Shown: one piece after another, positions 634 through 61,267 of the stretch
How positions within the stretch are numbered: the first letter of the stretch is position 1
Layout: every line of letters starts with the position of its first letter
From: Ulota crispa
Lineage: Eukaryota > Streptophyta > Bryopsida > Orthotrichales > Orthotrichaceae
Direction of reading: 5' to 3'
DNA: 64,000 bases
Assembly: GCA_963920765.1 (NCBI GenBank)
Contig: OY987245.1
Span: 932,501 to 996,500 of the forward strand
Position numbers and translations under genes: made by a program
Notes under the pieces: generated by a model
What the model was told of the DNA's origin: nothing
Database searches by the model: none
Seen by the model: only the letters and a program-made list of their open reading frames with translations

Positions 634-1176
634 GTTGCTATTGGTTGAATGCTTTTACCATTTGAACGGATGAGGGAAATTATTGTCCAACATTGGAAAT
701 AAGAAACACTATGTTTCTCCGAAGATGGAATTCTAGAGGTCGCCTGGTGATGCTCTTCTGATGCATAATAAACTCTCGCACTATTCAAAAGCGACAAAAC
801 ATATAACATCAACTATTGAGGCATTTCACACATGGTAAAGGAAAAATATGAATGTGCTAGAATTGTCGGATCTTCAAGAATTGATGGTGGGTCCAAGCAT
901 TAACAAAGTAGTTTCCATATTCAAAACTTGGAAATTCCAAGGTTTTCTGACACTGTTGCCAATGTTCTCACTACCTATATTCTTTTTGGCCGTGGTACTT
1001 TTCCTTTTACAATTTTTTTTCTACAAATGCAAAGTTTTTACAAATTCTCTTCATTTCTCATGAACTTCACAAGGTTAACAATCTTGTTTCCAATCACTTA
1101 ACCTCTAAGCGCCCAAGCGGACCGTTTTGGTCAAGGATCCTGTCTTATTGTGAAAAGTTGGGCTCTCAAGGGTTAA
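634..1176. other. Intergenic, no gene seen
   Basis: AT-rich DNA with only short chance reading frames. A possible degenerate TTAA-type end (TTAACCTCTAAGCGCCC) lies near 1098. Confidence 0.35.
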
Positions 1177-1400
1177 CCCCTAAAGGACCAAGGAGCCCTC
1201 TTTGGGTTTTATGAGAACTTGGGCAGGCTCTCTTGATTTCATAATTTGGAAATTTTTCATGAGATTTTTAGGATGGATGCTACTCATCATAATCTACATG
1301 TGAAGCTTTATTTCATGTCGTTCCAATAAGTAATGCAAAAGTTAGAAGGTTTTTTCAATTTCAATGCCAAACTGGGCAACAAAAAATATGTTTGAAATTT
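1177..1400 (+). repeat. Fragment of a family-A TTAA element
   Basis: TTAA at 1173-1176 is followed by CCCCTAAAGGACCAAGGA, the left end shared with the elements at 8063 and 10314. The similarity fades after roughly 200 bp and no matching right end was found, so this is a truncated copy. The right boundary is approximate. Confidence 0.5.
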
Positions 1401-1477
1401 TTTAATTTTTTTTATTGAGTTGTATAGATTAATACCTACTCAAAAAAGATTGAAACACTCAATTCCAAATAATGAGG

Positions 1478-1811
1478 CATTAGGAAAAATATGGGGCCCT
1501 AATAAGGCCCTGAGTTTGGGGGGGTCCCTAGCCATGGGAACCCGGTTCCCAATAAAATCATGCAGAGGTTGAGGTGGCATCTTTGATGCCACATCAGCTT
1601 TTTTGATTTTTTTAATTTACAAAAATCAAAAAATCAAAAAAGTCAAAAAAAAATCTTATTTTTTTCTAAGACTTTTTTTTGGATTTTTGGATTTTTGGAT
1701 TAATTTTTTCTAACCATCAGCAAGGGCTGGTTCCCCACATTGGGAACCAAAAAAATGAAGGGCTGGAATTGTTTATAAAGGCCTTCTTGAGGCCCCATAT
1801 TTTTCCTAATG
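1478..1811. repeat. Foldback MITE with CATTAGGAAAAATATGGGGCC ends
   Basis: The 21-bp sequence at 1478-1498 recurs inverted at 1791-1811. Weaker pairing continues inward (GGGAACC-type blocks near 1537 and 1741). About 334 bp, no coding capacity. Target duplication not clear. Confidence 0.6.
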
Positions 1812-2504
1812 TAAGAGTTAAGAGGAGTTTTATTTTGTGGGCAATGAAGGTAGGAAGAGGGTAGAAAAAACATATAAAGTTATCTTTTACTCTCAATTTC
1901 AAAAATTTTCAAATGAAAATGAAAATTTAAGTTACTAATTATCTGTTAAAGCATTCTCACCATTGGGATTAACAATTTTCAAATTCTTCCAAAACTTATT
2001 AGCATATTAGTTATATCTTTCATTCATCAATACCTTTCACTTTACAATTTTTGTAAAAATGAATCCAAAGTTTTTTTTGGTTAGATTTTTTTATGTCTGC
2101 TTTCAACACATTTTCCAACATATTGCCAAAATTGCACAAGAAATACAACATATATGTTTTTCTCTAAAAAGTTTGAAAAACAAAACTTCACCTTCTGGGA
2201 GGACTAGCAAAGCCTACATTTTGAAGTTTAGGCACATTGATCTTGCAATTGATAGGGATTTTCATTCTAAAAGTTTGGGATGATGTAGTTGTGCAAGTCA
2301 ACCAAAGGATCTTACGGTTGGATTTGTTAAAAGATAAGTTTCAATGAAGATTTAGACCTTGCTTTGGAAACTAGCATTTCACTATTTTGAAGCAGTTTTG
2401 GGCCTCTAAACACAAAAGAATTTTGGGGGTTAAACAATTGAAGGTAGGAAGGACATAACATTTAGTAGCACTAGTAAAGGTTACCCTCCCTCCAAGAGAA
2501 TGGT
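1812..2504. other. Intergenic, no gene seen
   Basis: AT-rich sequence with poly-T runs and short chance frames only. Confidence 0.35.
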
Positions 2505-2770
2505 ATGGAATATTCCACACCATGTCATCCATTGGATGAAATGGCGTGGAATATTCCACACCATTTTTTAACTATGGGGACACTTGGTTGAATTTGTCAA
2601 AAAGTCTATGAAAGAGAAGCTCAGTCCAATGCACATACATCAATGTGGGGACCCAAACATGTCAAAACTTTATTATTATTATTTTTTGTGAAGATGAAGT
2701 TCATGATGATACCTGACGAGAGGGAAAGGCAGCCTCTCTTCACGCTACTGAACGTTATGAGTCATCTTCA
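2505..2770 (+). repeat. Dispersed repeat, copy 1 (partner 27310-27580)
   Basis: Blocks such as GGACACTTGG, GAAGCTCAGT, GATGTGGGG and GAGGGAAAGGCAGCCTCT occur in the same order near 27370-27580. Both copies contain TGGAATATTCCA palindromes at the left. Family unknown. Confidence 0.6.
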
Positions 2771-2854: not shown

Positions 2855-2857
2855 GGG

Positions 2858-4007: not shown

Positions 4008-4337
4008 AGGTAGGAGGTTCTAAATTGATGGTGCGTGCTCTAAAATGGTGCACCTCTTCAAATAAATTCAATTTGTACATGTTGTTTTTCATAGTCCTTC
4101 AATAATGTACAAGAGATGTACATTTGAGGAGATGCACCAATTTTGAAACCTATGGCTTTTCTACTTCAATATTTCTTAACTAATTTCACAAAGCTCCAAA
4201 AATTATGAAACAACTTGGGTTAGATGCCATTTTGACTTGTCTATCAAGGAAAATTTATTAAAAAATATTTCAAGGAGTTTTACCTCCCCAAAATTCAATT
4301 TCAGCCCTTAAATGCTCCATTTTAGAACCTCCTACCT
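4008..4337. mobile_element. AGGTAGGAGG element, 330 bp (TA site)
   Basis: Terminal inverted repeats AGGTAGGAGGTTCTAAA and its complement, flanked by TA at 4006-4007 and 4338-4339. It shares its interior with 6177-6502 in the opposite orientation. Non-autonomous; TA sites suggest Tc1/mariner-like transposition. Its right end overlaps the TTAA of the next element. Confidence 0.75.
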
Positions 4338-4340
4338 TAA

Positions 4341-4988
4341 CCCCAAAGCGTCATTGGGGACAAAAATTGTCCTTGACCAATTTTTGAGGTTAAATTAAAC
4401 CTGACCAAATTACTATTTTTACTAGATTATATTTTTGAAAAGTTCTTTCTAAAGTTTAATTTTAGCTTCAACAATTTGATTTTGCAAATGATTAATTATG
4501 ATTTTTCTATTCAAGATTTTGTGCACGGGTGTTCATTGCAATCTTGACTTTATGTAGTGTTGACAGCTCATGGGAATGAGCCTCAAATACACTAGATCTT
4601 TGAGAAAAAAATCACATTAGAAATTCATTTAAAAAAATTGTAGAGTAGGTTTTGAGAAGTCATAAATTGATTGGAGTTATATATGTTTGGCTCTTTAACC
4701 TCATATTTTTTTAGTGACCAAATTTTTTGATTTGACATGTGAAAAGAAGATTGAAAGACTTCAAATCACTTTCACAGTTTTAACACGCTCATGATCAAAC
4801 ATTATAATCTTTCAATTCATAAGAGATATTGTTGTGTTTTATTTTCTACTGTGATTTCTAACATGTCTAGTTTGATTTTTTACAATTACAATTCAAAAAG
4901 AATTGATACAATTTATCAAAATATTGGCTTTTTAGTTCAAATTAGAGAAAATTCCTAGAAGCCTTGGGAATGCAATGTAACTTTGGGG
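4341..4988 (+). mobile_element. Family-B TTAA (piggyBac-like) element, 648 bp
   Basis: TTAA at 4337-4340 and 4989-4992 flank ends CCCCAAAG...CTTTGGGG. Same family as 48608, 49241, 50078 and 59670. It keeps an unoccupied TTAA at 4492-4495, exactly where the 59670 copy carries another element. No coding frame. Confidence 0.8.
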
Positions 4989-4992
4989 TTAA

Positions 4993-8062: not shown

Positions 8063-8947
8063 TCCCTAAAGGACCAAAGTTCCCTCAGGGAACTTTCAGG
8101 ATTTTGGGTAGGCTCGTGTGACCTCAATTTTTGACATGATTTTTTGAAACTTTCTATGGGTGTTTAAGAATGTATAAGGTTTGTGGATACAAAAAATCAT
8201 GTGATTTTGTCATACAGTTCACAAGTTATGGGTTTTTTTTGGCCAAAAGTAGTTCAAGGGGCAGCTTGGGCAAGGGAGAAAATATTGACTTTGGAGGGGA
8301 GGGAGCAAGGAGGGGTTGCCACATGTTGCTCTGGTGGTCCCCATTACTTCCCCTTTCATTTTCAAATAGGAGGTGAAATTGGGCTTTGGGAGCTTCTAAA
8401 TTTTAGAGATTTTGAGTTTTTAAACTTTTTCTTTTTTTGACATTTGAAGTACATGTTTATCTTCAAACTCACCGTTTGGATTTTCCATATCTAAAAACAT
8501 GTGGTGGGAAACTTCACTCAAAAATGTCATAGTGTATTTGCAAAACTTGTCATATAGTGGCATTGCAATGTACTTTAGGATGTGTTCTGTTTCTTTGATT
8601 GCCTTGAAAATTGGTGTACAAAGGTCTAACTTGACTGCCTACAAGATAAAATTACAACTTCAATGTCCGTAGTGCAAAAAAAATCAGCAAATGTTAGTGA
8701 AAGCCATCTGAAATTTTTGAGCATAATGGAAAAAAAATTTCCCTTCAAATGCTCATAACTTTCAATCCATATGGTCAAATGTCATGAAATTTTTACCACT
8801 TCTTCTTCTACAAGTGCATTACAAGATCCTATGGTTAGATGATCAAAAACAACATTTTGTTGAGATTTTTGGTGAACGCAGCAATAGGGGCAGTTTTAAG
8901 TGGTTTTTGGCAAAAAATGGCCTTGGTAGTTTAGCTCAGTTTAGGGG
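8063..8947 (+). mobile_element. Family-A TTAA element, 885 bp
   Basis: TTAA at 8059-8062 and 8948-8951. Left end TCCCTAAAGGACCAAAG; right end GTTTAGGGG. The right part (ACCAAGGCC..TGCCAAAAACCACT on the complement) matches the elements at 60167 and 10314. Non-coding. Confidence 0.65.
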
Positions 8948-10313: not shown

Positions 10314-11275
10314 CCCCTAAAGGACCAAGCCCTTTTTACTTTGAAAATCATTGAAAACAAGCCACTTTTGGGGGAATGAGTAGAAAGGTAGGAAAAAAAG
10401 TTTTTTTTGAAAATTCAACCATAGTATCTTGCCCTAGACTATGGGAGGTACTCAAGGGAAAAATTTTAGCTTATTCTAGAAGTAGAGGAGTGAGACATTG
10501 ACATTTAAAGTGAAAAAAAAAGTTTTTTCCTTGCTGCCCAAAAATTTCAAAAGCCTTTGATAGCTCCTATATCAAAAAAGTTGCTCTCCGCAAAGTTGAG
10601 GTTTATTTTTTCTATGTAGAAGACCAAGTTAGGTAAATGTGGGAGAATTTTCAAATGAATTGGAGGTTTGAATCATACATTGTAAAATCTTGCAACGCCA
10701 TAAGGCCATGAAATTTGCATATACATTAGGCAAAATTGGAGGATTTGTGTAAAATTGAGAAATCTGAATTAGTTTGATCTAAATGGTAAAATCCAAGGAA
10801 TCTTAGTCTACTACAACTTGAGAAAAAAAAAAGTAAAAAGAAACACAAAGAGCTCAAAAAAGTAAAGTAACAAATTTTACAAGGGGTTTAGGGTTTAGGG
10901 TTTAAGGACTGGAGGTTTGGGAGTCCCATACTTACCTGCAAACTAAAACTTCTCATAACTTTCATCTCATTAATCAAAATTGAATGATTCAAGGACCTCC
11001 ACATTTGTGTAAATTTAAAAAATTGATTTCAGATTTTTATTTGAGAAAAATGCAATTTTGATTATTTTTTGGGCTGCCCGCCATCCCCCTTTTTCAAAAA
11101 TGCATGCATAACTTCTTCAATAAATGTTGGAATAAAGAAAAAATTAGACGCCCACATAGAACATTGAATTCCCCACCTTCCATAAAAGTTTCAAAAAATC
11201 TCAAAAAATATATCAGCTATAAGTACATGCCCAAAATCCATTTGTCTCCCGAGGAGACAGTTTGCCCTTTAGGGG
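10314..11275 (+). mobile_element. Family-A TTAA element, 962 bp
   Basis: TTAA at 10310-10313 and 11276-11279; ends CCCCTAAAGGACCAAG and CCCTTTAGGGG. Same family as 25625-26497 and, inverted, 60167-61103. It lies within the spacer of the 9810-13836 inverted repeat. It contains three plant-telomere-like TTTAGGG units near 10884-10904. Non-coding. Confidence 0.8.
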
Positions 11276-14253: not shown

Positions 14254-16988
14254 ATGCACCTGTTGAGCGCGCGAGCTCACGAAATGGGCAAAGTGCACAA
14301 GGAGGAAGATGCTGCTGTGACTGCTGCAAGTGGAGGACCGACATCGAGCAGACCGGTGGGGAGGAAACGGGATCTGGGGTGGAAGATGATTTACATTGTG
14401 ACGGTGATCGGGTTCATCGGCATGATGCAGCTGATTTTGGTGGAGAATCGCTGGCGGAGCTACCGATACAGGCAATTCCCTCTTGCTACTGTCGAGTTCG
14501 GGAGGACGGCGTCGTTCATGCGGTCCGCTTCGTCGTCTTCACAGCACGACGCAGCACAGCTTCCGAGTAAGTAAATCCGATTGCACCTCGTCGTTCAAGC
14601 TTGCAGGCTTTCAGAGAAGTAGTCTTAATTACAGCGTGACACCATTTTGAGAGCTTTCGAAAAACTGAACACCGGCCGGGTGTGACAGTAGGCGCCAATT
14701 CAGACAGGCAGCAGCAATCTGTCGAGCTTCACGAGCGACGACACGGCGACATCGAGACAGAAACCAAGAATGAGAGGTTGCTAGAATTCTCGCCTTCGGA
14801 TTCTTTCCTCCCGATGAAGGACGTGACGCAGTCGGGCCTGTCATGGACGGACACCAATTGGTTCATGAGTGGACTCCGTGGTCGAAATACCGGCTCCGGC
14901 GAGACATTCGACTTACCGCGAGATGATCCCGCCGGGAGATTGCTCTGCTTGCGCGGAACCGACCAACAAGACGGCACCAAGAACAGCTATGGCTTGTTCC
15001 GAACACTGCCCGCGGATGCACTCCTCCTCACCGGCACTACATTCGTCGCGGACAACTACTGGGACTACGGTAACCCCTGGCACGCCATGGCCGCTCTTGC
15101 CAACTTCGCGACCTGGCGCTTGGAGAACAAATGCGCCGCGCCGGACAGACTGTTGCTGTACCACATGGGCGAGGTCGTCGATTCCATGGGGGGGTGGATC
15201 ACGCACCTCCTCCACGCGGTTTTTATGAAACCCGTCCCGATTGAAACCGCAACAGGATCGCCAGCGGGGTCCGCCTCAGTGTGCATGGAGCGGGCTGTTG
15301 TGCAGCGGCGGGGGTTGGGCAGGATGGACCAAGCTCATATTCATGCAGTCTTTGAATTGCTGCAATGCAGCGCCAGGCGATATTGCGGAGTTCCGAGACG
15401 GCGGCATTCTGCACGCGCGCCTGCGGTGCTGCTGTACACGAGGTCAGGCCCGCGCGCGTTTGCGAACGAGAGCGGCGTCGCGGCTGTCGTGCGAAATGAA
15501 TGCGCGATGGCGCCGGGGTGCGACTTGCGCGTCGTGAATGCTGCCAACCTCACATTCTGCGAACAGGTGCGTGTGTGTGCTTGTGTGGCATTTGTAAGCT
15601 TGCTACAATGCAAGTAGTGTACACAAATGTGGCTAAATTTACCAAAAAATAAAGAAAAGAGAAGAAAACTAGAGTATTTAGTTTGAGTTTATACATTTAG
15701 CAGTGTTTTGGCATGGTTCAAGGGTGTAAAAACCAAGATACTAATTATTTAGAGGCATGCTCCAGTCTTTTTGGAATTTAACGTACTATTGATCTTCTCT
15801 TCACTCATCTTCTCTTGGTTTCAATGTCTTAATTATCCCAGTTACATCAAATGCATCATAAAGGAAAGTTTTTTTTTAAAAGGTTTTAGCATTACTTTGG
15901 AGTTTGGATGAATTAGAAGTCATTTTGATGAAACCTCGTTCCAAAGCACCTTCAGAATAGGGACTTGATGGGCACTCACAGGTAAGTAAGTCAAAATGTT
16001 TTCCATAATAAATAAATAAAAGTAGGAGCACCTAATTGTCCCGTTGACATGAGTAAAACAAAAACATGATAAAAAAGAGGATTTTAGAAACTAAACGAAA
16101 ACATCTCTTGGGATGTGTTGTAGTTACTTTGGATGTTTTACAATCGTCCAACTCAAAACCTTGACCATTATGGTCTAGCAAGCTATGTACTTGTCTCAAC
16201 TACCATGCTCACAAAAAAACTCAATGATAATAACATTACACAGCGTTATGTTTGACTATCTTCCAATCCCAAAATTTTCCTCAAATTTAAATGGACAAGA
16301 GGAGAAACAATGGTTACATTCACTCCTGGATATGTGGAAAAGTGTATTTCCTCACCTTCTATGTTCTAGTTCCTTTCAATATGTTGGGCTATGTGATCAA
16401 TCAAGTTGGTAATGAAGACTACGAAAGCTTGGTATTGTTGGGAGGGTTTAGGGTTTAACGCGGGCAAGCAACCCTAATTTGGTGCTGGAGAGGGGGCGGG
16501 GGGGGGGGGGGGGGGGGGATGTGGTGGCACAGGTGGAGGTGATGAGCGGCACAGACGTGCTGATCAGCGTGCACGGAGCGCAGTTAACCAACATGATGTT
16601 CATGGATCCGGGCTCCCGAGTGATGGAGCTCTTCCCCAAGGGATGGCTGGAGTTCGCGGGCGTGGGGCAGGAAATTTACAAGTGGCTCGCCGACTGGACC
16701 AGAATCGTCCATGCCGGACAGTGGCGCGATCCGGACGGGCCCGATTGCCCCTTCCCCACTTCCGAGACTCTGCAGTGTCTCTTCTTCTTCAAGGATCGGG
16801 AAGTGGGGCTCAACGCCACGCACCTCGCGCTCTGGACTCGCTCCGTGTTGGCCGAGTACGGCAACGCCTCGGAGCTGCCGCCTCCCTTGGCTCATGCCGG
16901 GTCCTCCTGTGCTTGCGACGAGACTGATCGTGGCAGTAGCTCTGGAGCGAGCTTTGCAACCGATTCCAAGTTTCATACGTCACCATGA
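14254..16988 (+). CDS. GT61-family glycosyltransferase (DUF563), type II Golgi membrane protein
   Basis: Exons 14254-14566, 14689-15566 and 16533-16988 join in frame to 548 aa. A short basic cytosolic tail is followed by one membrane segment (about residues 44-63) and a lumenal catalytic domain, the type II layout of Golgi transferases. Family hallmarks are YWDYGNPWH at 228-236, a GLGRM-type block, FCEQ at the end of exon 2, and HGAQLTN at 411-417 followed by ELFPKGWLEFAGVGQ and WRDPDGPDCPFP. Plant GT61 enzymes transfer xylose or arabinose to N-glycans, xylan or mucilage; the donor and acceptor here cannot be read. The start at 14254 gives the longest frame; an ATG at 14284 also lies before the membrane segment. 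The last intron ends in an unusual run of 21 G just before the acceptor, and an in-frame alternative acceptor at 16491 would add a Gly-rich stretch. The gene is convergent with the acyltransferase. Confidence 0.9.
16498..16518 (+). repeat. Run of 21 G at an intron end
   Basis: An uninterrupted G tract inside the last GT61 intron, 14 bp before the acceptor at 16531-16532. It replaces the usual pyrimidine-rich tract. Confidence 0.8.
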
Positions 16989-23746: not shown

Positions 23747-24311
23747 TGCTGCATTCTGTACCAGAGTGATTTCAAACGCCGAGTGTAGCCAATGCTGCTG
23801 CTGCTAAGCTTAATGCTGCTGGCTTGTCTCTCTCCCTTTCTCTCGCTTTCTCTGCGAGCGTATCTTTGCCATGTTTGTAAAGTCGGATGCACTGACAGAC
23901 AATGCGGGACTGAGTTTTAAACCGAGCTGCTTCCATTCTCTCTCTCTCACTCTCTTTCTGCCCCTGCCTTTGCTTCTCTATGGCAGGCGGCTGCCACTTG
24001 CAACATTTGCATCTTTGCATAGGAACTGCGTTTTTCTCAGTTGCCAAATTGAGAATATCTTTACCATGGATGGAGTGGTGGATGTCGAATTTCAATATAT
24101 TTAGTATTTCGCGTGCTTTGGGGTGCAAAAGGCAAGTAATTACCATAGTTAGAAAAAGCCATACTGGCTTAGCCCTCATAATTCATGTCAAGGGCAATAC
24201 TACACCTCACGGTTGTCACTTTGGGCAAGATTTGGCCAACAAAGAGGACAGGTGGACATGCAATGTAGACCGGACGGGGTAGCTGTCCATGTTGGAATCA
24301 AAGTGCAGTAA
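23747..24311. other. Intergenic, pyrimidine-rich patches
   Basis: CT-rich runs at 23826-23860 and 23936-23962. No supported gene. Confidence 0.35.
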
Positions 24312-24702
24312 GGTAGCAGCATCCATAAGTGTTGCGTCCCCATGCCGTCACCCGACAGTGGCAGGGGCTAATCGATAAAAAAACAAATGGTTGTGGGTGA
24401 TTGAGTGATAGTTATGGATGATGAAGTGATGGTTGTGGGTGACTAGCATGAGGTATTGAGTATGTATCTCACTATGTAAGAACCAACAAGCCTTGTTTTT
24501 AGCATCTCTTACACATGGTTCCTATAATTTCAGTGATTTTAGACTTTGAAAAATCTTTGTGAAATGCTTGCAGTTGGAACCTTGAAATTGATGCCAATCT
24601 TTTTGGTTTCCATTTCCTAACTTATAGTATTTTTTTCAAAGTTAGTCAATTTTTTTACCTGCTCCAAAACCCTTATTTCCACGATTATGGGTGCGCCTAC
24701 CT
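24312..24702. mobile_element. AGGTAG-CACCCAT element, 391 bp (TA site)
   Basis: TA at 24310-24311 and 24703-24704 flank ends AGGTAGCAGCATCCAT and the complement of AGGTAGGCGCACCCAT. It is a close relative of 59310-59666, sharing AAGAACCAACAAGCCTTG and CAGTTGGAACCTTGAAATTG. Non-coding. Confidence 0.75.
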
Positions 24703-24704
24703 TA

Positions 24705-29347: not shown

Positions 29348-30257
29348 CCCTTTAACGACCACACCCATTTTCACAAAATCCATTGAAAACAAAATAGGGG
29401 TTGTAAGCTTAGATTTGGAATTGACTCAAATATGGACCCACTTTCAATAATCCAACCGTACGAATGGAAAGTACACCTTGTTTGTTGTATAGCACCAAAA
29501 TTTCAGCTAGATCTACCATTGGAGGTGAAATACTATAATGACTCAGTGAGCCATATGCAGAAAATCTCTTGTGTTTCATTCTTGTATAGTTATGAATGTT
29601 AACCTTTCATGCAAGCTTTGATTGAGAAGAGCCTTACATTTCTAGAAAGCAGGGGTTCCCACCTTTCCAACAAGACTAGTTTCACACAAAATAAACAAAA
29701 ATAGCAATCACAAGGTGTAGCTAAGTGGACAAAGAGGGTCAAAAAACCCACTTTCTTTGCTACCCTAAAACGGTTCTACAAGAAATTTGATAATTATTCT
29801 CAAAAATCCAATTGGTGAAAACAATTAAGAACTAGCCTTAAATGTAGGATAACAAATTTTAAAACCAAAATGACAACAACATTTTAGTAGATCTTCAAAT
29901 ACTACAATTATACTACTACCGTATAGGAAAACAATACAAGCATATTTCTTAAGTAATTTTTATTTTTTTAAATTGTGCAATTGAAATTTGACATTCTTCT
30001 TGCATATTTGATATATTGTGTTATTGCTTTGATCCATCTTTGACAAAAATTGGATACGTATTTTGAAACCATGCCATATAAACACCATTATTTGTCAACT
30101 CACATACTTGATTGCATTGATATTTTTTTAGATGGATGCAAAATTCTTGTGATTACATGCATTCTTCAAGACCAAATTTCAAATTACTAAGAGATTTCAA
30201 CCTACAAGCCCAAAACCACACCTAGCGACCAAATATGGTTGCGTGGTCCTTAAAGGG
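29348..30257. mobile_element. TTAA element, 910 bp
   Basis: TTAA at 29344-29347 and 30258-30261. Ends CCCTTTAACGACCAC and the complement of CCCTTTAAGGACCAC are near-perfect inverted repeats. Same size class as family A but largely diverged inside. Non-coding. Confidence 0.7.
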
Positions 30258-31325: not shown

Positions 31326-31442
31326 TTAACAATTAAGGTTCCAAAAATACACTAGAAATCGATCACATTCTGGTTGCCTGGTTGTTAATGAATTGTTGTA
31401 ACATTTGTGTGGTCTAGAACTCCAAATGTATCATTTTTGCAA

Positions 31443-31846
31443 GGGAATTGATATATGCACATTGAGGGGTTGATATTTGCACACCCCCTTGGCCTAAATT
31501 TTAGATTTCTACCATCATAAAGCTGAATTTGAGAATTTTGAATTCAAATTTGGACTTAGAGACCATGCTTTAGTCTAGAATCATAAAAAAGGTTGCAATT
31601 GAACAACACCCAATGAAATAGTTTAGTTAGAGGGAAAGGTGTTACTTTTACTATTTGTAAAAAATGATAAGCTTTTTCATTGGGTTTTGTTCAATTGCAA
31701 CTTTTTTTTATGATTTTAGACTAAATCATGTTCTCTAAGTCCAAATCTAAATTCTCAAATTCAACTTTATGATAATAGAAACCTAAAATTTAGACCAAGC
31801 AGAGTGTGCAAATATCAACCCCTAGTGTGCATATATCAATTCCCTT
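31443..31846. mobile_element. Mutator-type MITE, 404 bp, 9-bp target duplication
   Basis: The exact duplication TTTTTGCAA flanks it at 31434-31442 and 31847-31855. Terminal inverted repeats begin GGGAATTGATATATGCACA, and most of the element folds back on itself. Sister of 50226-50634. Non-coding. Confidence 0.88.
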
Positions 31847-36509: not shown

Positions 36510-37446
36510 CAGTGGCCTCGAACAAAGTTTGTCGGGCCATGTTTTTGCACTGAGAGATCATGTTATGTTTTGACATGAAAATGAGGTCCATGGCCACTTC
36601 TTTTTCTTGTATTTTTTATATCTTGTTCTTACTCCCAATCCCAACCAAGCATATTAAATTTTAATCCTAATAAATCAAAATCCAAATTTTGATAAATTGT
36701 TTTGTGTCACAAATTATAGTTTTACATGGTTTTGCAAGAAAATTCATTGAAAAACGTTGATGATGAATTTTGGAAATTGGACTGCATGAGTAAAGAGGTA
36801 GCATCCATACGCACATCTGAATTCAAATTTTCCATGCTAAAAAACACCCCTAAAGTAAAACAAAATTGATCTTTGAAGAGTTTAGTGTGACCCGCAATAT
36901 GTCCAAATTTTGTCTAACATATGTTTTTAAGTTTTAGTTAGCTTTTCACCAAAGAAACACAATAGCATGTTCAAAGGTACAATCTTAGTCATAATGTATG
37001 AGTCAAATAGCAAAATTTGATTACCATAAGAAAATATCTATTTTACAAATTTTGGACATATCACGGGTCACACTAAACCCTTCAAAGATCAATTTTGTTT
37101 ACTTAAGGGGATTCTTTAGCATGGAAGATTTGCATTTGGATGTGCATATGAATGCTACCTATATACCCATGCAATCAAATCTCCAAAATTTATTGTCAAT
37201 GTTTTTCAATCAAGTTTCTTGCAAAACCATGTAAAACCATGATTTGTGACACAAAACAATTTATCAAAATTTGGATTTTGGTTTATTGGGATTAAAATTT
37301 GGTATGCATTGTTGGGATTGGGAGTAAGAATGAGATATAAAAAATACAAGAAAAAGAAGTGGCCATGGACCTCATTTTCATGTCAAAACATGACATGATC
37401 TCTGAGTGCAAAAACATGACCTGACAAACTTTGTTCTAGGCTACTG
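36510..37446. mobile_element. Palindromic pogo-like element, 937 bp
   Basis: TA at 36508-36509 and 37447-37448 flank ends CAGTGGCCTCGAACAAAG and the complement of CAGTAGCCTAGAACAAAG. Nearly the whole element is two inverted arms around a centre near 36970. TA sites and CAGT ends fit pogo/Tc1-mariner derivatives. Non-coding. Confidence 0.8.
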
Positions 37447-37448
37447 TA

Positions 37449-38337
37449 TAGTACCCAAAAGAAAGAGTATATAACACCCTTATATGGCATCCAAAGAAGT
37501 AAGTATAACTATGTACAACAAAGAATATAAGTGACATTTCATTCTCACATTTTTAATATGTGATCCTCATGCAATCTTGATTAAGCATATCAAATTTCAG
37601 TTACTAAAACCCAAAATCCTATTTTTGGTAAAGAGTTTTGTGTCAAAATCATGGTTTTACAAGAAAGTTGATTAATAAATAGTGGTGATGAATTTTTGAG
37701 ATTTAATTGCATGGATATGTAGGAGACATCCATACGTACATCTTTCTTTCAAACAAACATTTCCAAAAAAATTCAAATTTCCTTCTATAGAGATTTTATG
37801 TTAGGGTGATCATGATCAAATTTAGTGAAATACATATTTCTTCATGGAAATTAGTTTTTTGTTAATTGACTCATACATTGTGATTAAGTTTGTACCTTTA
37901 AACATGATGATATATATTTTTTTGCCAAAAACTAATTTCCATGAAGAAATATGTATTTTACTAAATTTGGTCATAATCACTCTAACATTAAAATCTCTAC
38001 ATAAGGAAATTTGAATTTTTTGGAAATGTTTGTTTGAAAGAAAGATGTACGTATGGATGTCTCCTACATATCCATGCAATCAAATCTCAAAAATTCACCA
38101 CCACTATTTATTAATCAACTTTCTTGTAAAACCATGATTTTGACACAAAACCCTTTACCAAAAATAGGGTTTTGGGTTTTAGTAACTGAAATTTGATATG
38201 CTTGATCAAGATTGCATGAGGATCACATATTAAAAATGTGAGAATGAAATGTCACTTATATTCTTTGTTGTACATAGTTATACTTACTTCTTTGGATGCC
38301 ATATAAGGGTGTTATATACTCTTTCTTTTGGGTACTG
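37449..38337. mobile_element. Palindromic pogo-like element, 889 bp
   Basis: It follows the previous element directly, sharing TA 37447-37448; the right TA is 38338-38339. Ends TAGTACCCAAAAGAAAGAG and the complement of CAGTACCCAAAAGAAAGAG. The arms cover nearly all of it. Central blocks (ATTGACTCATACATTGTG, TACCTTTAAACATGAT) resemble the centre of the 36510 element. Confidence 0.8.
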
Positions 38338-38339
38338 TA

Positions 38340-39092
38340 CAGTGGACAGGATAATGTTCCTAAAACATCAACAAAAAAGTTAAAACTTTAAATAAACTGC
38401 CAAGCAATACATCAATAGAATTTGATGTCATGTAAAAAACACGGGAAAGAACTGAAATACATCAATAGAATGAAAAACCAGTTGACAATTAGGAACTACA
38501 CATGTAGACTGCTTTTGGCTCCATTTCTTACAGAACAATACCACTTAACGCCTTAAAGTGCCTACAAAGATGAAGCATGTAGATTTTGAGCTTTTGATAC
38601 AAAATTAATCATGACTTGAGAAGTTTATAAGATTTTTCAAAATTTCCCCGTTTCATCATTTATATTTCCCCGTATCTATATGAACAAGAACCTAGAATGG
38701 TCAAATTACTTTGATAGTTGAAGAATAGACAAAAAAGAATTCTTTTCTTTCTAAGCATACTTGGATGTGTTGCATCCATTTCATACAAATTATGATGTAT
38801 GGTTTTGGGTTTGAAAACCTTTGTTGTTCCCCAGTGGACTCTGGCTGGTTACCCAAATTGGTCTTTTGATTGTGTCCAGTTTTAGGGGAAAAGAACACCA
38901 GGGTACTGGTGTCCGTGGGGCCATTACGACCGTCATGTCACCTGCAAGGCACACTCAAAAGCCAGGACCATGCAGAAGTTATGGTTCACTGGAGGTGAAC
39001 CATCACCACCCCTGAGCCGGACTGACCACCAAGCCTGCACTCACAGCTCCATATCCCATGCCTTGGATGTGATGGCCTGGCCATTTATTGGC
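38340..39092. other. Intergenic with a GC-richer patch
   Basis: 38820-39070 is GC-rich and contains the hairpin CACCAGGGTACTGGTG, but no recognisable gene. Confidence 0.35.
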
Positions 39093-39096
39093 TTAA

Positions 39097-39559
39097 CCCT
39101 TAAAGGACAGAGCTACTACAATACATAATATGTATGCTGCTGTATAACTAGCATTTGCTACCAACAAGAAGTTTAACCCTTAAACGTTCCAACGTGCCGC
39201 TACGACCAGTACAATACGGGGTATTTTTTTTGTATTTGGAATGGATTCACACCTCTACTACATCTGAGATCAACAAAGCAGTCGGAGAATAGATCAATGC
39301 GGTTCTAGTGAGCTACTTGAGATCCCAAATTAAAATTTCTTATCGGTAGCAAATGACAATTATAGGTCAGCGTATATACAATTCCCCATGGATGTTTAAG
39401 GGTTAATTTGGAATCTTGACTACCTCACTAGAACAATATTGATCTATTTTCTAACTTCTTTGTTGATCTCAAATGTAATAAAGGTGTGGATGCACTCCAA
39501 ATACAAGAAAAATACATCGTATTGTATTGGCCACAAAGGGCTACTTTGTCCTTTAGGGA
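39097..39559. mobile_element. Foldback TTAA element with duplicated left end
   Basis: TTAA at 39093-39096 and 39560-39563. The right end is the complement of TCCCTAAAGGACAAAGTAGC. Two left ends exist, CCCTTAAAGGACAGAGCTAC at 39097 and CCCTTAAACGTTCC at 39177 (after TTAA 39173-39176). Arms from 39190-39345 and 39403-39540 pair. A further TTAA at 39403-39406 marks the middle. Confidence 0.6.
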
Positions 39560-41669: not shown

Positions 41670-41674
41670 TATAT

Positions 41675-42836
41675 TCTTGATTGCATCACTATTTGTGAGT
41701 ATTGCACTGCTTTTAGTCAACCAGATTCTCACTAGTCATTTCTAACAAGGCTGCCACGTCGTGTTGCACTTTCTCTTGTCGTCCATAGTTATTGATTCTC
41801 GTCACGTTACACCACTACTTGTCGTTGTGAAATGTGAACACTCCCACTCCTCACTACCATTCCAAACAAGTTTGTATAAAAATTATATATAAATGGTGTT
41901 TTAATCTCATATTGATGGTGTGTGATTCTCATGCAATCCCAATCAATCACACCAAATTTTGGTTACCAAAAACCAAAATCTTATTTTGGTAAATTGTTGT
42001 GTCAAAATCATGGTTTTACAAGAAAGTTGATTAAAAAACATTGGTGATGAATTTTTGAGATTTGATTGTGTGGATGTCATATGTAGAAAACATCCATATG
42101 CACATCTTTCCTTTTAACAAACATCTTCAAAAAGCTCAAAACTCCTTCATTTGAGATTTAAATGTTGAAGCGATCATGACCAAATTTAGTAAAATAGATA
42201 TCTCTGTGTTTTTAATTAACTTTAGGCAAAATAAACATATTATCATGTTCAAAGGTATAGATTTGATCATAACATATGAGTCAAATAACACAATTTAATC
42301 ACCATAAAGAATCATCTATCTTACTAAGTTTGGTCATGATCACTTCAACATTTAAATCTCAAATGGAGTTTTGAGCTTTTTGAAGATGTTCGTTAAAAGG
42401 AAAGATGTGCAAATGGGTGTTTTCTACATATGACATCCACACAATCAAATCTCAAAAATTCATCACCAATGTTTTTTAATCAACTTTCTTGTAAAACCAT
42501 GATTTTGACACAACAATTTACCAAAATAAGATTTTGGTTTTTGGTAACCAAAATTTGGTGTGATTGATTGGGATTGCATGAGAATCACACACCATCAATA
42601 TGAGATTAAAACACCATTTATATATAATTTTTATACAAACTTGTTTGGAATGGTAGTGAGGAGTGGGAGTGTTCACATTTCACAACGACAAGTAGTGGTG
42701 TAACGTGACGAGAATCAATAACTATGGACGACAAGAGAAAGTGCAACACGACGTGGCAGCCTTGTTAGAAATGACTAGTGAGAATCTGGTTGACTAAAAG
42801 CAGTGCAATACTCACAAATAGTGATGCAATCAAGGA
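41675..42836. mobile_element. Near-perfect palindromic element, about 1.16 kb
   Basis: The outer about 260 bp of the two arms look identical by eye. Inner arms are slightly diverged, meeting near 42240. It shares inner blocks (AAATCATGGTTTTACAAGAA, GATGAATTTTTGAGATTT) with 37449-38337. Terminal TA/CAGT marks are not clear, so the ends are approximate. Confidence 0.7.
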
Positions 42837-43210
42837 TAGTACCAAAGCTTGATAAACATTATAAAACACATCAGTGAATGGAGATACACTTATAATTATT
42901 TGCAAGGACTATAATATCTTTTGAACTCGGGATGTTTTGCAAAAAGAATCTACAAAGAACAAGGGTGTTGACGCAGCTGTTCAAGAAAGTTATGCAACTG
43001 GGGAGCGTGTGGCACTTAGATTTAGCTGGGTTTGAGGAGTTGCACAAGAGAAAAAGAAGAGAAAAAGAAAAATTAAACTTGTCATTCTTCAAGGAGGCTA
43101 CAACAAAAAGTACAACATTTGTAGAGAAGTTCTGTTTGACAGGGGAACCATATCTGTACAAGAAAAAAGAAAAAAATAGAAAATTGATATTAGAATACAC
43201 AGGACTTCGT
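42837..43210. other. 3' flank of the aspartic protease gene
   Basis: Includes the likely 3' untranslated region on the minus strand. An open plus-strand frame overlapping the last exon is its shadow. Confidence 0.4.
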
Positions 43211-48607: not shown

Positions 48608-49236
48608 CCCCTTACCGCCCATGGTATTTTTGAGTATCTCAGAATTTGCTTGAAAGTGAGGAAAATGCAAGCATTTTGATCAATTTTCTCTAAAACGCAA
48701 CCATACAAATCCAAAGTAGATATGTTATAGATCACATAAGAAAAGAAATTACAACAATATCACTTATGGATTGAAAGATTATAATGTTTAATCATGAGGG
48801 TGTTGCAAAAGTGATTTGAAGTCTTTCAATCCTCTTTTTGCATCTCAAACCTAAAACTAAAGGTACCAAAAAAATATAATTAGGTAAAGTATAACATGCA
48901 TAACCCAATCAATTTACGGCTTCTCAAAATCTATTCTACAGTTTTTTTAATTGAAATTTTTAAGTGAATTTCTCTCCAATTTCTTGTGTACTTGAGGCTC
49001 ATTTCCAAGAGCCTTCAACACTAGAAAGTGAAGATTTACAATGGACACCTTTGCACAAAATCTTGAACAGACAAATCACTTTGATTCGTTTTCAAAATCA
49101 GACTCCTAATGCTGAAACTAGACTTCAATAAGAATTTTAAAATAATAAAAATCACTAAAAAAATCTTGAAAAAAGGTCAAGCATCTTTGAATAAAATTCA
49201 GAGGGGCCCAATTTGGGTCCTTTGGGCGGTGAGGGG
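48608..49236 (-). mobile_element. Family-B TTAA element, 629 bp
   Basis: TTAA at 48604-48607 and 49237-49240; ends CCCCTTACCGCCCA and the complement of CCCCTCACCGCCCA, nearly perfect. The interior matches 4341-4988 in reverse. Confidence 0.82.
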
Positions 49237-49240: not shown

Positions 49241-49873
49241 CCTCTAAATGCCTAAGGCACCAAAAATTGGTGTAAATAATATTTTGAAGTTCAATAAATC
49301 TAACTAAGTTTCTATTTTTAGTACTTTATATTTTTGAACTATTCTTTCTAAAGTCTAGTTTTAGTATCAAAAATCCAATTTTGAAAATGATTGATTGTGA
49401 TTTTTCTATTGAAGATTTTGTGCAAGGGTCTTGACTTTTTGTAGTGTTGAGAGTTTTTGGAAATGAGCCTCAAATACTCTCAATCTTGGACAAAAGTTTG
49501 CACTAAAAATCCATCAAAAAAATAGTTGATAAGATTTTGAAAAACTGTAAAATGATTGGAGTTACATATGTTATGTCCTTTAACCTTGTATTTTTTTGGT
49601 GACCAAATTTTTAGATCCAACATTTGACAATATGGTTGAAGAGCTTCAAATCATTTTTGCAATTTTAATACCCTCATGATCAAACATTATAATCTTTCAA
49701 CCCATAAGTGATATTGCTGTGTTTTCTTTTTCAATGTGATCTCCAATATTTCTAGTTTCAATTTGTATGGTTACATTTAAAAATAATAATTTACAACTTA
49801 TTAAAATGTTAGCTTTTTGTTCAATTTACAGCAATTTCCTAGAAGCCCAAAAAAGGCCTCAAGCATTTAGGGG
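49241..49873 (+). mobile_element. Family-B TTAA element, 633 bp
   Basis: Shares TTAA 49237-49240 with its left neighbour; right TTAA 49874-49877. Ends CCTCTAAATGCCTAAGGC and the complement of CCCCTAAATGCTTGAGGC. Opposite orientation to its neighbour. Confidence 0.82.
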
Positions 49874-50077: not shown

Positions 50078-51140
50078 CCCCTAAATGCCCAAGGCATTCC
50101 ATTTGGATGTTTACAAAGATTTGAAGATGAATAAAACCTTATCAAATCATTATTTTTAGTAAAAAAACTCAACACAAGTTTGTTTTGAAGTCTATTTTCA
50201 ATATTAAAAAATATAATTTTGAAAAGGGAATTGATATGGACACACCTTGAGTTTGATATATGCACACCCCCTCTAAGATAAATTCTAGAGTTACCATCAA
50301 AAAGTTGAAATTAAAAAGTTTGAATTCAAATTTGGACTTTGAGACCTTGATTTAGTCTAGATACATAACGAAGATTACAATTGAACAACATCCAATGAAA
50401 AAACTTAGTTTTTTTTACAAACAAGAGTAAAAGTAATAACTTTCCCCTAGTTAAGCTTTTTCATTGGGTGTTGTTCATTTGTAACATCATTCATGGTTCT
50501 AGACTAAATCAAGATCTCAAAATCCAAATCTGAATTCAAAATATTCAAATTTAGCTTTTTGATGGTAAATATCTAAAATTCTTCTCCCGGGAGGTGTGCA
50601 TATATCAAACCTTGGGTGTGCCCATATCAATTCCTTTTGAAAATGAGTATTAATGATTTTTCTACTCAAGCTTTTGTACAAGGGTGTCCATGGCAATCTG
50701 GAGTTTTCTAGTGTTGGAAGATCTTGAAAATGAGTCTCAAATACACTAGAGCTTGGAAAAAAATTCACATGAGAAATTCATTTAAGACAAATATAGGAGT
50801 AGATTTTGAAAGCCGTAAATTGATTGAAGTTAAATTTGTAATGGCTGTAAACCTCATATTTTTTTGGTGACCAACTTTTTAGATTTGACATGTGAAATGA
50901 GGATTGGAAGACTTCAAGTCACTTTTGCAATTTTAACACCCTCATCTTCAAACATTTTAATCTTTCAAACTATAAGTGATATTCTTGAGTTATTCTTTTT
51001 TCATGTAATCTCTAACATGTTTAATTTCAATTTGTACAATTACAATTGAAAAAAACTTGATGAATTTATGAAAAGGTTGATTGATTGTTTAGTTCCATGA
51101 ATATTCCAAGAAACTCAAAAAGGCCTTGGGCATTTAGGGG
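50078..51140 (+). mobile_element. Family-B TTAA element split by a Mutator MITE
   Basis: TTAA at 50074-50077 and 51141-51144; ends CCCCTAAATGCCCAAGGC and its exact complement. The total is 1063 bp; without the 409-bp MITE and one 9-bp duplication it is 645 bp, matching sister copies. Confidence 0.88.
50226..50634. mobile_element. Mutator-type MITE, 409 bp, 9-bp target duplication
   Basis: TTTTGAAAA duplicated exactly at 50217-50225 and 50635-50643. Ends GGGAATTGATATGGACACA and the complement of GGAATTGATATGGGCACA. Foldback structure; sister of 31443-31846. Confidence 0.88.
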
Positions 51141-52501: not shown

Positions 52502-55500
52502 ATGGCACCTTCGCAGGTGAATGCGCTGGAGCTGCTGCGACCGCTCATGGAGAGCCATTCGCCTCCTCTCCATGCGCTTGTTGTGCCCTCGGAGGATTAT
52601 CATCAGGTCAGTATCGTCATTTCCTCGTAACTTCTTTTCGTTGGCATTTTTCGTTTCTCTGATGTTGTGGCAGGCCACGAGGAAATTGGCGAGAATTTCA
52701 ATGAGAAATTAGATCGTTTGGTGTGCGTTGGAGTGATTGGCAATCGTCAGCTTAGAGATCGGAGATCGTTTAATTTTCTTTTTATTCAGTTTCTATGTTT
52801 TTTATATGCTCACTTTTCTGTTGAGTATTACTCCGCTGTCTCCTTCTTGAGACTTATAAGCTAGGGTTCCTTTATTAGGCGTGTAGACCTGCAAGTGTTT
52901 TCAGCCAGGTTTATTTTTTAGAATTAGCTCAAATGAAAGTTGGTGAGATAAGTGCATGAGCTAAGGTCGGCTCCGAGAATGTAGCACCGATTTATTACAT
53001 CACTTGGAGTTTCATCTTGAGAGTATGTGGCGTATGCAGAGGTCAGACATGCGGGTAGTAGTTTTGATTTTTTGTGCTCACTATATCTTTCACATTTGCG
53101 AAGGAAGCAATTGACGTCTATTCGCTATGCGGATGAGCATGTTCGGCAACTCACAGTGTACCTACTTGCATGCAGAGCGAGTATGTTGCTGATGCGGATA
53201 AAAGGCGGGAGTTTGTCTCAGGATTCAGTGGAAGCGCTGGTAAAAAAACAGTGTATCCTTAAACGCTGGTTGCATTTTGGTGTTCAGAAACAACTTCATT
53301 TGTGCATAGGTTGCATGTTTAATTATAGTTCTCGGTTGGTTGTTTAGATTTAATATCACAATGTGCGCATGTTTCTGTTCTTTGGTAAATTTCAGTGCAC
53401 GTTTGAAAGCGCATCTTATTATCTTTCGCTTATTGACTAAATCATTCTAGACTAACCTAGAATCGCCTCTTACGCTGCTTGTATTGCTGCTACATGGATA
53501 TGAATGCGATCTTCAGAACAGATTCTCATGATATTTGTACTGCACCTTTTGAACAGGAATTGCTTTGATCACTGCAAATGAAGCCTTCCTCTGGACAGAT
53601 GGACGATACTTTCTGCAAGCTACCCAACAGCTCAGTCACGAGTGGAAGTTAATGAGGATTGGCGAAGATCCACCTCTTGAGAACTGGATCGCTGATGTGT
53701 GTACTCCCTTTACTTTCAAGCTATTGACCTTATTTGTTAGGCGGATTTTTGTCGCGGGATCTCTGACCTTGTCTTAGTAGGAGGTTAGCTGAACCTACTC
53801 TGTCGACGGTCCTTAATGGGCCAATTTACCTTTTGAACCTAGCTTTTTTTCTTTGTGTGCATCAATACTGCTGTGTAAAGTTTCATCTCTAAGCAACATA
53901 TCATTGTCGTTGCAGAATCTTCATAAAGATGCAAATGTGGGGGTTGACCCGTGTTGCATTTCGGTTGACACTTCACACCGATGGCAACAGGCCTTCAGTA
54001 AGCATAACCAGAAACTGGTTTCACTGAAAGAAAATTTAGTTGACCGCGTGTGGGAAAATCGTCCCGCACATGTTGTGGCTCCCGTTTGCATTCAGCCTTT
54101 GGAGTTCACAGGCAGGACAGCAAAGGATAAGATAAGTGATTTGCGAGGGAAGCTGGACCAGGAGAAGGCTAGTGCAATTGTTGTGACTACGCTCGATGAG
54201 GTAAAATTAACGTTCTTGCTCTTTCTTTAACGAGTCGCCCTCTGACATGTTCAACCTGATAATAGTTTGTTTCCTCAACAGCTTCATCCTATTGGTAGGT
54301 TATTCATATCTCACCCTGTGTTAACCAGGGAAGTAGAACATCTGAACGAATTCAAGTGTATAGAACGTGATAAGTAGAACGTCGGAGGTGGTTCACTTAG
54401 ACGAAAGCGGCAATTGATCTGAATTTATGAGATTTTTTGTGGGATTTTACGGAGGATTGCTTTTTTTTTGGTTTATTTTTGACAATCTGGGCTTTACGAT
54501 GCTTAATTATTTTTCGTTCATGCAAGAAAGTGCTAGCTGTTCGGACATTGATGTTCTTCTTTGCAAATGCCGACGTGGGCGTTCGAGTACATCAATGTGC
54601 TCACTGTGCTCTGAATACGGATACCCAGGTCGCATGGCTTTACAATCTGAGAGGTGGAGACGTACTTTACAACCCTGTAGTTCATGCATATGCCATAGTG
54701 ACTCGAGATTCTGCCTACTACTATGTGAACAAGGCAAAAGTGGATCTGAAGGTACCCATTGAATCCTTGGTTATTCTGCGTCTCAATTATGTAACTATTG
54801 GAAACATTTATTGTCGAAAAATACTCAGTTGCTTTTAGCGGTGTTATTGTTAATTGGTCCGCATATTTTATCTGTGTCTTGTTTTATCTTTTATAAATGT
54901 TTTTCAGGTGGAACAGTATCTTTGTGAGAACGGAGTGGAATTACGTGACTATGAGGCTGTATTTGAAGATGTAGAAGCCCTTGCTTCTGAGAAGCCATCT
55001 GCAGTGAAGAATACTTCTACGGAGTCTACTGAAAAAAACGGTCTTATAAATGGTCATGGAAATGACGAGAAATCAGAATCCACCGAGTCCAAAGCTGCAG
55101 AAAAACTTGACGATTTGTCAAATACATCTGTTGAAGGATCTCTTGATGATGCCCAAAGCGTATTGACTTGGATTGATCCTGGGACATGCAGCTTTGCTGT
55201 GTATTCTCGTTTGACAGCTGATCGCTTCGTTTTACAGCAGTCTCCTCTTGCTTTGGCAAAGGCTTTAAAGGTGGATTTCCGTCCGATTATCTTTGTTCTC
55301 GTGTTGGCGTTTCCTAGTAGTTGTAACTGTTGTAAAAGCTGATAGCCAGTCTTTTCAAGGCTGATAATCAATATGGGCAGTAATACTCCCAACGGTTCTT
55401 GTTATGTACTCTAGTTAGTTTCTAAGAAGTCTATAAATTTATACCGTAGCACTTTTGAATGCGAGTGAGTCGTTGCAGTTCACTGCCGCATGGTTTCAAT

Positions 55501-58908: not shown

Positions 58909-59309
58909 GCATTCTTTGCGGATCTGAATGGATTGCGGCAACTATCTGTCAGGTCTAGTTTGTATTGTTGGAACATCGAATCTATGTTGTGTAAAGAGTA
59001 CAGGTAGGTTTAGGGGTTCCTTTTTTGTTATTGATGCCTTCGTGCAACCCTATCCTTGTATCGATCCAGATTGGCTTTTGTCATCTGAAATTAGTAGTTC
59101 TTGTAAAGAAAGCATCTTTTTATAGCTTGAAATCATCTATTTTACGGCTCGGTTTACTGCACATACGTCGATCTGGGCCCCGCCCCCGTCAGAGCTTAAA
59201 AAAATAATAATGTTCCATGACTGCCCCTGCCCAGGCCCCAGAGCGCCACAGAATGAAACTGTCGTCCACCTTCATGGGCTCAGCTGATGTCATCCACACG
59301 TGGGATTTA
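58909..59309 (+). other. 3' flank of APP1
   Basis: Likely holds the 3' untranslated region. No other gene seen. Confidence 0.4.
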
Positions 59310-59666
59310 AGGTAGCCGCACCCATGGGCATCATTGACAAAGTTAGGGTAGTTATGGGTACTTAAGTGATAATTTATGGGTGACAAAGTGATGGTTGTGG
59401 GTAACTCCATGAAGGTTTTGAGTACACATCTCACTATTTAAGAACCAACAAGCCTTGTTTTTAGCATCTCTTACACATGGCTTTACATTTTTGGTGATTT
59501 TGGACTTTGAAAAATCTTTGTGAACAAATGCTTGCAGTTGGAACCTTGAAATTGATGCCAATGTTTTTTGTTTCCATTTCCTAACTTACAGTATTTTTTT
59601 CAAAGTTAGTCAATTGTTTTACCTACTCCAAAACCCTTATTTCCACGCTTATGGGTGCTCCTTCCT
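59310..59666. mobile_element. AGGTAG-CACCCAT element, 357 bp (TA site)
   Basis: TA at 59308-59309 and 59667-59668; ends AGGTAGCCGCACCCAT and the complement of AGGAAGGAGCACCCAT. Close relative of 24312-24702. Its right end merges into the TTAA of the next element. Confidence 0.75.
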
Positions 59667-59669
59667 TAA

Positions 59670-61263
59670 CCCCAAAGTGACATTGCATTTCCAGGGCTTC
59701 TAGGAATTTTCTTTAATTTGAACTAAAATGCTAATATTTTGATAAGTTGTATAAATTCTTTTTGAATTATAATTGTATAAAATCAAACTAGAGATGTTAG
59801 AGATCACATTAGAAAAATAAAACACAACAATATCTCTTATGAATTGAAAGATTATAATGTTTGATCATGAGTGTGTTAAAAATGTGAAAGTGATTTGAAA
59901 TCTTTCAATCTTCTTTTCACATGTCTAATCAAAAAAGTTGGTCACTAAAAAAATATGAGGTTAAAGAACCTAACATGCATAACCCCAATCAATTTATGAC
60001 TTCTCAAAATTTACTTTACAATTTTTTAAAATGAATTTTTAATGTGATTTTTTCTCAAAGATCTAGTATATTTGAGGCTCATTCCCAAGAGCCCTCAACA
60101 CTACATAAAGTCAAGATTGCAATGAACACTTGTGCACAAAATCTTGAATAGAAAAATCATCATTAACCTTTGAAGGACCATTGTCCCTTTGGGAGACAAG
60201 TTGAACCTTGGGCATGTACCTATGGCTAAACTACTTTGTGTGATTTTCTAAAACTTTTATTGAAGGTGGGGAATTCAAAGATCTACGTGGGCATCTAATT
60301 TTTTTCTTCATTCTGACATTTGATGAAGAAGTTATGCATGAATTTCAAAAAATTTGGGGAGGACTGCCCACCTGGGTAGCCCAAAAACTTCTTTAAAAAT
60401 TAATTTTTTAAAAACTCAAATTTGAAATCGGTTCTTTAGATTTTTTTTAATTCATGAGAAGCTTTGAATCATTCAATCTCAATCAATGACATGAAATTAT
60501 GAGGAGTTTTTGTTTGCGGGCAGGTTTTGAATTCTCTACTCTAAAATACACTTTGAAGTCCTTGATTTTACTCAGTTTTCATTATTTTGGAAAAAAAATT
60601 AAACCAAAGGAAGTAGATTATTTATCACAACATTATTGCTGTTGGGATTAGCATTTTTCATTTCCATAATTAAATTCTTAACAATTTAGTGTTTTGACTC
60701 ATTCTCTACTTCTTTTTACTTACTACTTTTTCCCATGTCTTGTAACGTTCTAATTGATTTGAAAACTCTCCCACACATACCTAACTTGATCTCCTACATG
60801 AAAAAATAAATTGCAACTTTGGGTAGAGCAATTTTTTTGTTATAAGAGTGGCCAAAGGCTTCTGAAATTTTTGGATAGCATGGAAAAAAAACTTTTTTTT
60901 TTTCCACTTTAGATGTAAATATCTCAATCCTCTCCACTTGGAATGAGCTGATTATTTTTCCCACAAGTACCTCTTCCAGTCTAGGGCAAGATCCTATACT
61001 TGGATTTTCCAAAAACAAAACATAAAATCCCTTTTTACTAAACCTCCCAAAAGTGGCAGTTTTCAGTGATTTTGGCAGGAAAAAAGGCTTGGTCCTTTAG
61101 GAGTTAATCATTTGCAAAATCAAATTGTTGAAGCTAAAACTAAAATTTAGAAAGAGCTTTTCAAAAATATAATATACTATTAATAGTAATTTGGTAAAGT
61201 TTTATTTAACCTCAAAAATTGGTCAAGGACAATTTTTGTCATTGGCCCAATGACGCTTTGGGA
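59670..61263 (-). mobile_element. Family-B TTAA element carrying a nested family-A element
   Basis: TTAA at 59666-59669 and 61264-61267; ends CCCCAAAGTGACATTG and ATGACGCTTTGGGA. The total is 1594 bp; minus the nested element and one TTAA it is 653 bp, like its sisters. The interior matches 4341-4988 reversed. Confidence 0.87.
60167..61103 (-). mobile_element. Family-A TTAA element nested in 59670-61263, 937 bp
   Basis: TTAA at 60163-60166 and 61104-61107; ends CCTTTGAAGGACCA and the complement of CTCCTAAAGGACCAAG. The sister copy at 4341 has a single TTAA at this point. Interior matches 10314-11275 inverted. Confidence 0.9.
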
Positions 61264-61267
61264 TTAA

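What the first reader, a model, noticed from the sequence alone, without database searches (positions are those of the whole stretch)
1173..61267. A large group of TTAA-flanked, CCCCTAAA-ended elements: piggyBac-like transposons in a plant?
At least twelve copies were delimited (4341, 8063, 10314, 25625, 28917, 29348, 30403, 39097, 48608, 49241, 50078, 59670, 60167), plus fragments. All have TTAA or one-change variants at the flanks and ends close to CCCYTAAAKGNCC. Two size classes recur (about 630-650 and 870-960 bp). To my knowledge piggyBac-type elements are well described in animals and some algae and fungi but hardly in land plants, so a dominant plant population would be notable. Other TTAA-targeting families cannot be excluded.
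Basis: partly seen in the sequence, partly recalled or inferred. Interest (0 to 1): 0.8.

Follow-up and report, generated by a model that had tools for sequence, protein, structure and literature searches.

The report
piggyBac-type transposons crowding a moss genome
The repeated short elements in this stretch are non-autonomous relatives of the piggyBac jumping gene, best known from animals, and they are very numerous in the genome of a moss, alongside longer copies that carry genes for the matching transposase.

Summary
All 13 listed starts are element ends (11 of 13 with exact TTAA); each has a plausible partner end and both size classes recur. One element sits inside another, and the uninterrupted relative has one TTAA where the filled copy has two. 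The host is a moss by matK. Genome-wide TTAACCCYTAAAKGNCC occurs 16,879 times; with TATA instead of TTAA, 7 times.

The genome gave 120 DDE_Tnp_1_7 matches (a lower bound). Of 20 such loci read, 10 could be delimited: 5.0-6.0 kb, TTAA-flanked, similar tips. Two of them align at 89-93% exactly from TTAA to TTAA. Another transposase-bearing copy has the 16-base tip of window element 50078. The commonest short family has no such partner yet.

New: the transposase-start end carries a palindrome centred on bp 25, its arms covarying between lineages. That is the place of the site bound by the C-terminal domain dimer of moth piggyBac (PMC7351741, passages). Short elements share it more weakly. Estimated genome share: roughly 8-16%, from 94 kb.

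The parts
4341..4988 (.). Short element, 648 bp, flanked by TTAA (4337-4340 and 4989-4992); holds the empty site TTAA 4492-4495. Palindrome at its left end (stem 6, centre 25).
8063..8947 (.). Short element, 885 bp, TTAA both sides; tips only 8 of 16 alike; left-end palindrome (stem 9, centre 24)
10314..11275 (.). Short element, 962 bp, tip CCCCTAAAGGACCAAG, TTAA both sides; right-end palindrome (stem 7, centre 25); 8,247 candidate relatives in the genome, the best 40 scored
25625..26497 (.). Short element of the 10314 family, 873 bp, left flank TCAA, right flank TTAA
28917..29277 (.). Short element, 361 bp, TTAA both sides; fits neither size class
29348..30257 (.). Short element, 910 bp, tip CCCTTTAANGACCA, TTAA both sides; whole copies also in L014, L018, L023 and L025
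30403..31325 (.). Short element, 923 bp, left flank GTAA, right flank TTAA
39097..39559 (.). Short element, 463 bp, TTAA both sides, with a second TTAA-flanked pair of ends inside (39177-39402)
48608..49236 (.). Short element, 629 bp, TTAA both sides; shares TTAA 49237-49240 with its neighbour
49241..49873 (.). Short element, 633 bp, TTAA both sides; tip like L012; left-end palindrome (stem 6, centre 25)
50078..51140 (.). Short element, 1,063 bp including a foldback repeat of about 410 bp (50225-50634); both tips CCCCTAAATGCCCAAG, TTAA both sides
59670..61263 (.). Relative of 4341-4988 in inverted orientation, TTAA both sides, interrupted by element 60167-61103
60167..61103 (.). Short element, 937 bp, nested in 59670-61263; TTAA at 60163-60166 and 61104-61107 where the uninterrupted relative has one TTAA
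1177..1192 (+). Exact element tip CCCCTAAAGGACCAAG behind TTAA; no partner end delimited
1102..1172 (.). Pair of TTAA-flanked tips 71 bp apart, probably a remnant; shares TTAA 1173-1176 with the tip at 1177

Best explanation
They are non-autonomous (MITE-type) members of the piggyBac superfamily in a moss nuclear genome. A DDE_Tnp_1_7 transposase encoded by about 5-kb relatives elsewhere in the genome recognises the CCCYTNANNGCCNAAG-like tip of each end and, at the transposase-start end, a palindrome centred on bp 25. It would cut the element out and insert it at another TTAA, which appears on both sides afterwards. Shown: TTAA flanks, one empty-site comparison, shared tips, transposase family, one-sided palindrome in transposase-bearing elements, abundance. 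Inferred: that these transposases move the short elements, that the palindrome is the C-terminal domain site, that excision is seamless, and that each short family is served by its own lineage.
For: TTAA before 24 of 70 window motif hits against 0.4 in controls; 16,879 of 20,180 exact ends behind TTAA genome-wide, 7 behind TATA. Nested insertion with an uninterrupted relative. 120 PF13843 matches, from 116 scored of 528 candidates. Ten of 20 transposase loci delimited with TTAA and similar tips; L024 and L028 align exactly from TTAA to TTAA; tips of L012/L027 equal those of 50078 and nearly those of 49241. The protein matches piggyBat and piggyBac structures and, at E up to 0.01, nothing else in the PDB. 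Palindrome at bp 25 of the transposase-start end with covarying arms, as in moth piggyBac (PMC7351741, passages); weaker in short elements.
Against: The commonest short family (CCCCTAAAGGACCAAG) has no transposase-bearing partner among the 20 loci read; its best tip score against transposase ends is 14, no better than many other pairs (no control run). No stretch inside a delimited transposase element matched a short element at E 1e-8, apart from a foldback repeat in L012. Eight of the ten delimitations rest on one copy and on hand choice among TTAA pairs with 10 to 15 of 16 tip bases alike. L010 and L014 lack the palindrome, and of the 22 other transposase loci the five with the best tips lack a stem of 5. 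TTAA flanks alone cannot tell a four-base duplication from a shorter one inside TTAA.
Confidence: 0.93

Rival explanations
1. The short elements belong to PIF/Harbinger (Tourist-type MITEs), which duplicate three bases, TTA or TAA (recalled), and can look TTAA-flanked.
For: The genome also holds DDE_Tnp_4 transposases: 150 matches from 150 scored of 278 candidates. A three-base duplication inside a preferred TTAA would leave the same flanks.
Against: All four bases are fixed in 16,879 of 20,180 exact ends. Elements with the same tips encode PF13843. I did not look for TTAA-tipped elements around the DDE_Tnp_4 matches.
Confidence: 0.03
2. The elements are Tc1/mariner-like, with a TA duplication inside a preferred TTAA and one more base at each end counted to the element.
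For: The flanks alone fit: T-TA-A on both sides leaves the same empty site.
Against: The transposase inside same-tipped elements is PF13843 and matches only piggyBac and piggyBat structures. Mariner transposases were not searched for in this genome.
Confidence: 0.02
3. The bp-25 palindrome is a chance or incidental feature, not a protein-binding site; the elements are piggyBac-type all the same.
For: Two of ten start ends lack it (L010, L014) and L012 has a stem of only 4. Of 22 further transposase loci, the five whose best tip beats the reversed-sequence control show stems of 1 to 4. In short elements it is weak: 15 of 63 ends, with one other position reaching 13.
Against: 7 of 10 transposase-start ends have a stem of 5 or more against 1 of 10 opposite ends and 3.9% of 10,000 random stretches; 3 of 20,000 arm shuffles reach the observed pairing; centre 25.0 is best in both independent sets; moth piggyBac has its site at the same place.
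Confidence: 0.12

Closest known systems
piggyBac of Trichoplusia ni (PDB 6x67/6x68; PMC7351741, passages seen)
   Same: Same transposase family; TTAA target; asymmetric ends; a palindrome at bp 17-33 of the left end, minor groove narrowed at about bp 25, bound by a dimer of C-terminal domains.
   Different: Moss elements are about 5.0-6.0 kb. The palindrome sequence differs by lineage. No second palindrome was found near the other end. No activity shown.
piggyBat transposase (PDB 9c0f)
   Same: Closest solved relative by sequence: 2.5e-20 for L017, 6.3e-50 for the 12-sequence profile.
   Different: A vertebrate element; its DNA ends were not compared here.
Beetle piggyBac elements (PMC12732532, passages seen)
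   Same: TTAA duplication; ends most often CCCT; one transposase of 500-725 residues.
   Different: Intact beetle elements are 2,074-3,465 bp; the ten moss elements delimited here are 5,025-6,010 bp with both TTAAs.
PiggyBac entries in plant repeat lists: Ceratopteris fern (PMC6890710, table passage), angiosperm MITE review (PMC10004981, passage), plant TE review (PMC10794571, passages)
   Same: Land plants; class named PiggyBac.
   Different: In the fern 1,230 fragments, 122 kb, 0.00% of the assembly; the two reviews name the class without element anatomy in the passages seen. Here elements are delimited, transposase-bearing relatives are present, and the share is several per cent.

Membership tests
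piggyBac superfamily | DDE_Tnp_1_7 (PF13843) transposase inside elements with the same kind of ends | tested here: met
   120 matches in the genome; 10 of 20 loci delimited around it; L024/L028 and L012/L027 agree between copies; PF13843 in open stretches of L012, L017, L018, L020 and L028
piggyBac superfamily | Three catalytic aspartates | tested here: met
   L017 frame aligns TVDE, TDNF and GVDIVDQ with the matching stretches of 6x67 and 9c0f; that these hold the catalytic residues is recalled. Exception: L018 has GVNVGDQ at the third
piggyBac superfamily | TTAA target, duplicated on insertion | tested here: met
   One nested case with an uninterrupted relative; 16,879 of 20,180 exact ends behind TTAA, 7 behind TATA
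piggyBac superfamily | Short terminal inverted repeats beginning CCC | tested here: met
   Window pairs 8 to 16 of 16 bases alike; transposase-bearing elements 10 to 15 of 16; a few tips begin CTC, CCT, TCC or TAC
piggyBac superfamily | C-terminal cysteine-rich domain | tested here: inconclusive
   L012 has a cysteine-rich stretch after the catalytic domain and so do relatives P0001, P0002, P0003, P0005 and P0017, but neither Pfam nor the PDB search matched it to the piggyBac domain
piggyBac superfamily | Asymmetric ends with a palindrome near bp 25 of the left end (as in moth piggyBac; not known here to hold for all members) | tested here: met
   7 of 10 start ends, 1 of 10 opposite ends, 3.9% of controls; covariation 3 of 20,000 shuffles
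piggyBac superfamily | Seamless excision | not testable with these tools
   Needs several individuals or a transposition assay
PIF/Harbinger | Three-base TTA/TAA duplication (recalled) | tested here: inconclusive
   Four bases are fixed at the ends, but a three-base duplication inside TTAA leaves the same empty site
PIF/Harbinger | DDE_Tnp_4 transposase inside elements with these tips | not tested
   The family is in the genome, but its elements were not delimited. The scanned open stretches of L012 and L028 had PF13843 or nothing

The most novel reading that the evidence does not exclude
A moss genome has been colonised by several piggyBac lineages, to about a tenth of its DNA and tens of thousands of short copies, each short family keeping the tip and the one-sided bp-25 palindrome of its own transposase lineage. 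The asymmetric end architecture known from the moth element would then be an ancient property of the superfamily, with the palindrome and the domain that reads it co-evolving.
Probability: 0.5. Interest if true: 0.75.

Novelty: new member of a known kind. Interest (0 to 1): 0.62.

Why it matters
piggyBac is the standard TTAA transposon of animal genetics and is described as only occasional in plants (PMC12732532, passage). A land-plant genome with thousands of ends and many transposase copies offers a natural comparative set for how the two ends are told apart, and for how palindrome and protein change together. It may also hold transposases suited to plant cells. Repeat annotation of mosses could miss a large class if libraries come from vascular plants (inference).

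Tried and rejected
Blastn of the window against the 20 ten-kilobase transposase loci found many whole short copies in the flanks, but nothing inside a delimited transposase element except a foldback repeat in L012 (E 1e-8). So the short elements are not simple recent deletions of the copies read; the link rests on tips and palindromes. Pairing TTAA sites by tip identity is noisy here because short elements lie close by: the chosen pair was not always the single top score (ties or second place in L009, L016 and L024). I lean on L024/L028 and L012/L027, where two copies agree; L027's other end was not delimited.

Tip scores between short and transposase-bearing elements had no control, and the right end of 4341 was cut two bases off there. 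By score 48608-49236 goes with L012 at one end (20) and with L027 or L018 at the other (13); I had thought of L009 and L014 by eye. I searched upstream stretches of 12 more transposases and of the 10 undelimited loci. The best tip beat the reversed-sequence maximum of 7 in five of 22 (L011, L018, L027, L030, L041; that of L027 is a short-element end), and none of the five has a stem of 5; L020 has one, with a tip score of 7. A second palindrome at the 3' end was not found. Protein searches returned 42 and 59 relatives: one with a species name (a fish), one from EukProt, the rest unnamed or called hypothetical; no named plant protein, but these searches need shared five-residue words, so this is no proof of absence. 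Rfam at gathering thresholds: nothing in the window. Ten searches of an open-access library listed no paper that I recognised as reporting piggyBac elements in a moss. I judged mostly by listings and opened passages of seven papers. Subscription papers and repeat databases were not searched. The Niphotrichum hit was the word piggybacking. No structure was predicted.
Full report
What the window is. The window is 64 kb of one chromosome-sized contig (C4:932,501-996,500) of a 275-Mb, 157-contig genome. matK was found on contig C157 (probably the plastid, inferred) and, nearly as a twin, in C7. The C7 copy was the query: its nearest named relatives are moss proteins (Orthodontium lineare 84%, Bartramia pomiformis 83%, Campylium stellatum 81%), with one unnamed protein at 93% (281 matched, 120 listed). 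The species is not identified. Window genes fit a plant: a glycosyltransferase-61 domain and a creatinase/prolidase N-terminal domain, both over the Pfam cut-off.

Noticed in passing
window 31441-31846 and 50225-50634; L012:2780-3185; L020:952-1345; L004:37-451: Family of long foldback repeats of about 400 bp (nearly the whole unit is one hairpin; window 31380-31900 folds at z -22 against shuffles). One copy sits inside short element 50078-51140. No transposase or target duplication was assigned.
   Followed up: partly
window 41672-42838, 37443-38343, 36503-37453: Three large inverted repeats with arms of 474, 337 and 351 bases at 99, 97 and 89%, sharing short repeats with each other.
   Followed up: no
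window 24308-24719 and 59308-59668; L016:8268-8643; L018:7870-8272: Another dispersed repeat, 89-94% alike to the L016 and L018 copies; the second window copy stops at the TTAA of element 59670, so it may give a second empty-site comparison.
   Followed up: no
L012:5802-7091, minus strand: A 430-residue glutamine- and glutamate-rich open stretch upstream of the transposase frame inside the element; no Pfam match. Perhaps a long N-terminal part or a second gene, which could help explain the 5-kb size.
   Followed up: partly
L029 (G000:C7:6540078-6544025): An apparently intact matK frame of 518 residues in a chromosome-sized contig, a twin of the one on C157; weaker matK pieces in C9, C2 and C10. 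Probably plastid DNA in the nucleus, or a misassembly.
   Followed up: no
whole genome: PIF/Harbinger-type DDE_Tnp_4 transposases: 150 matches from 150 scored of 278 candidates.
   Followed up: no
window 14640-16988 and 54854-55342: Parts of a glycosyltransferase-61 gene and of a creatinase/prolidase-type gene between the transposons.
   Followed up: no
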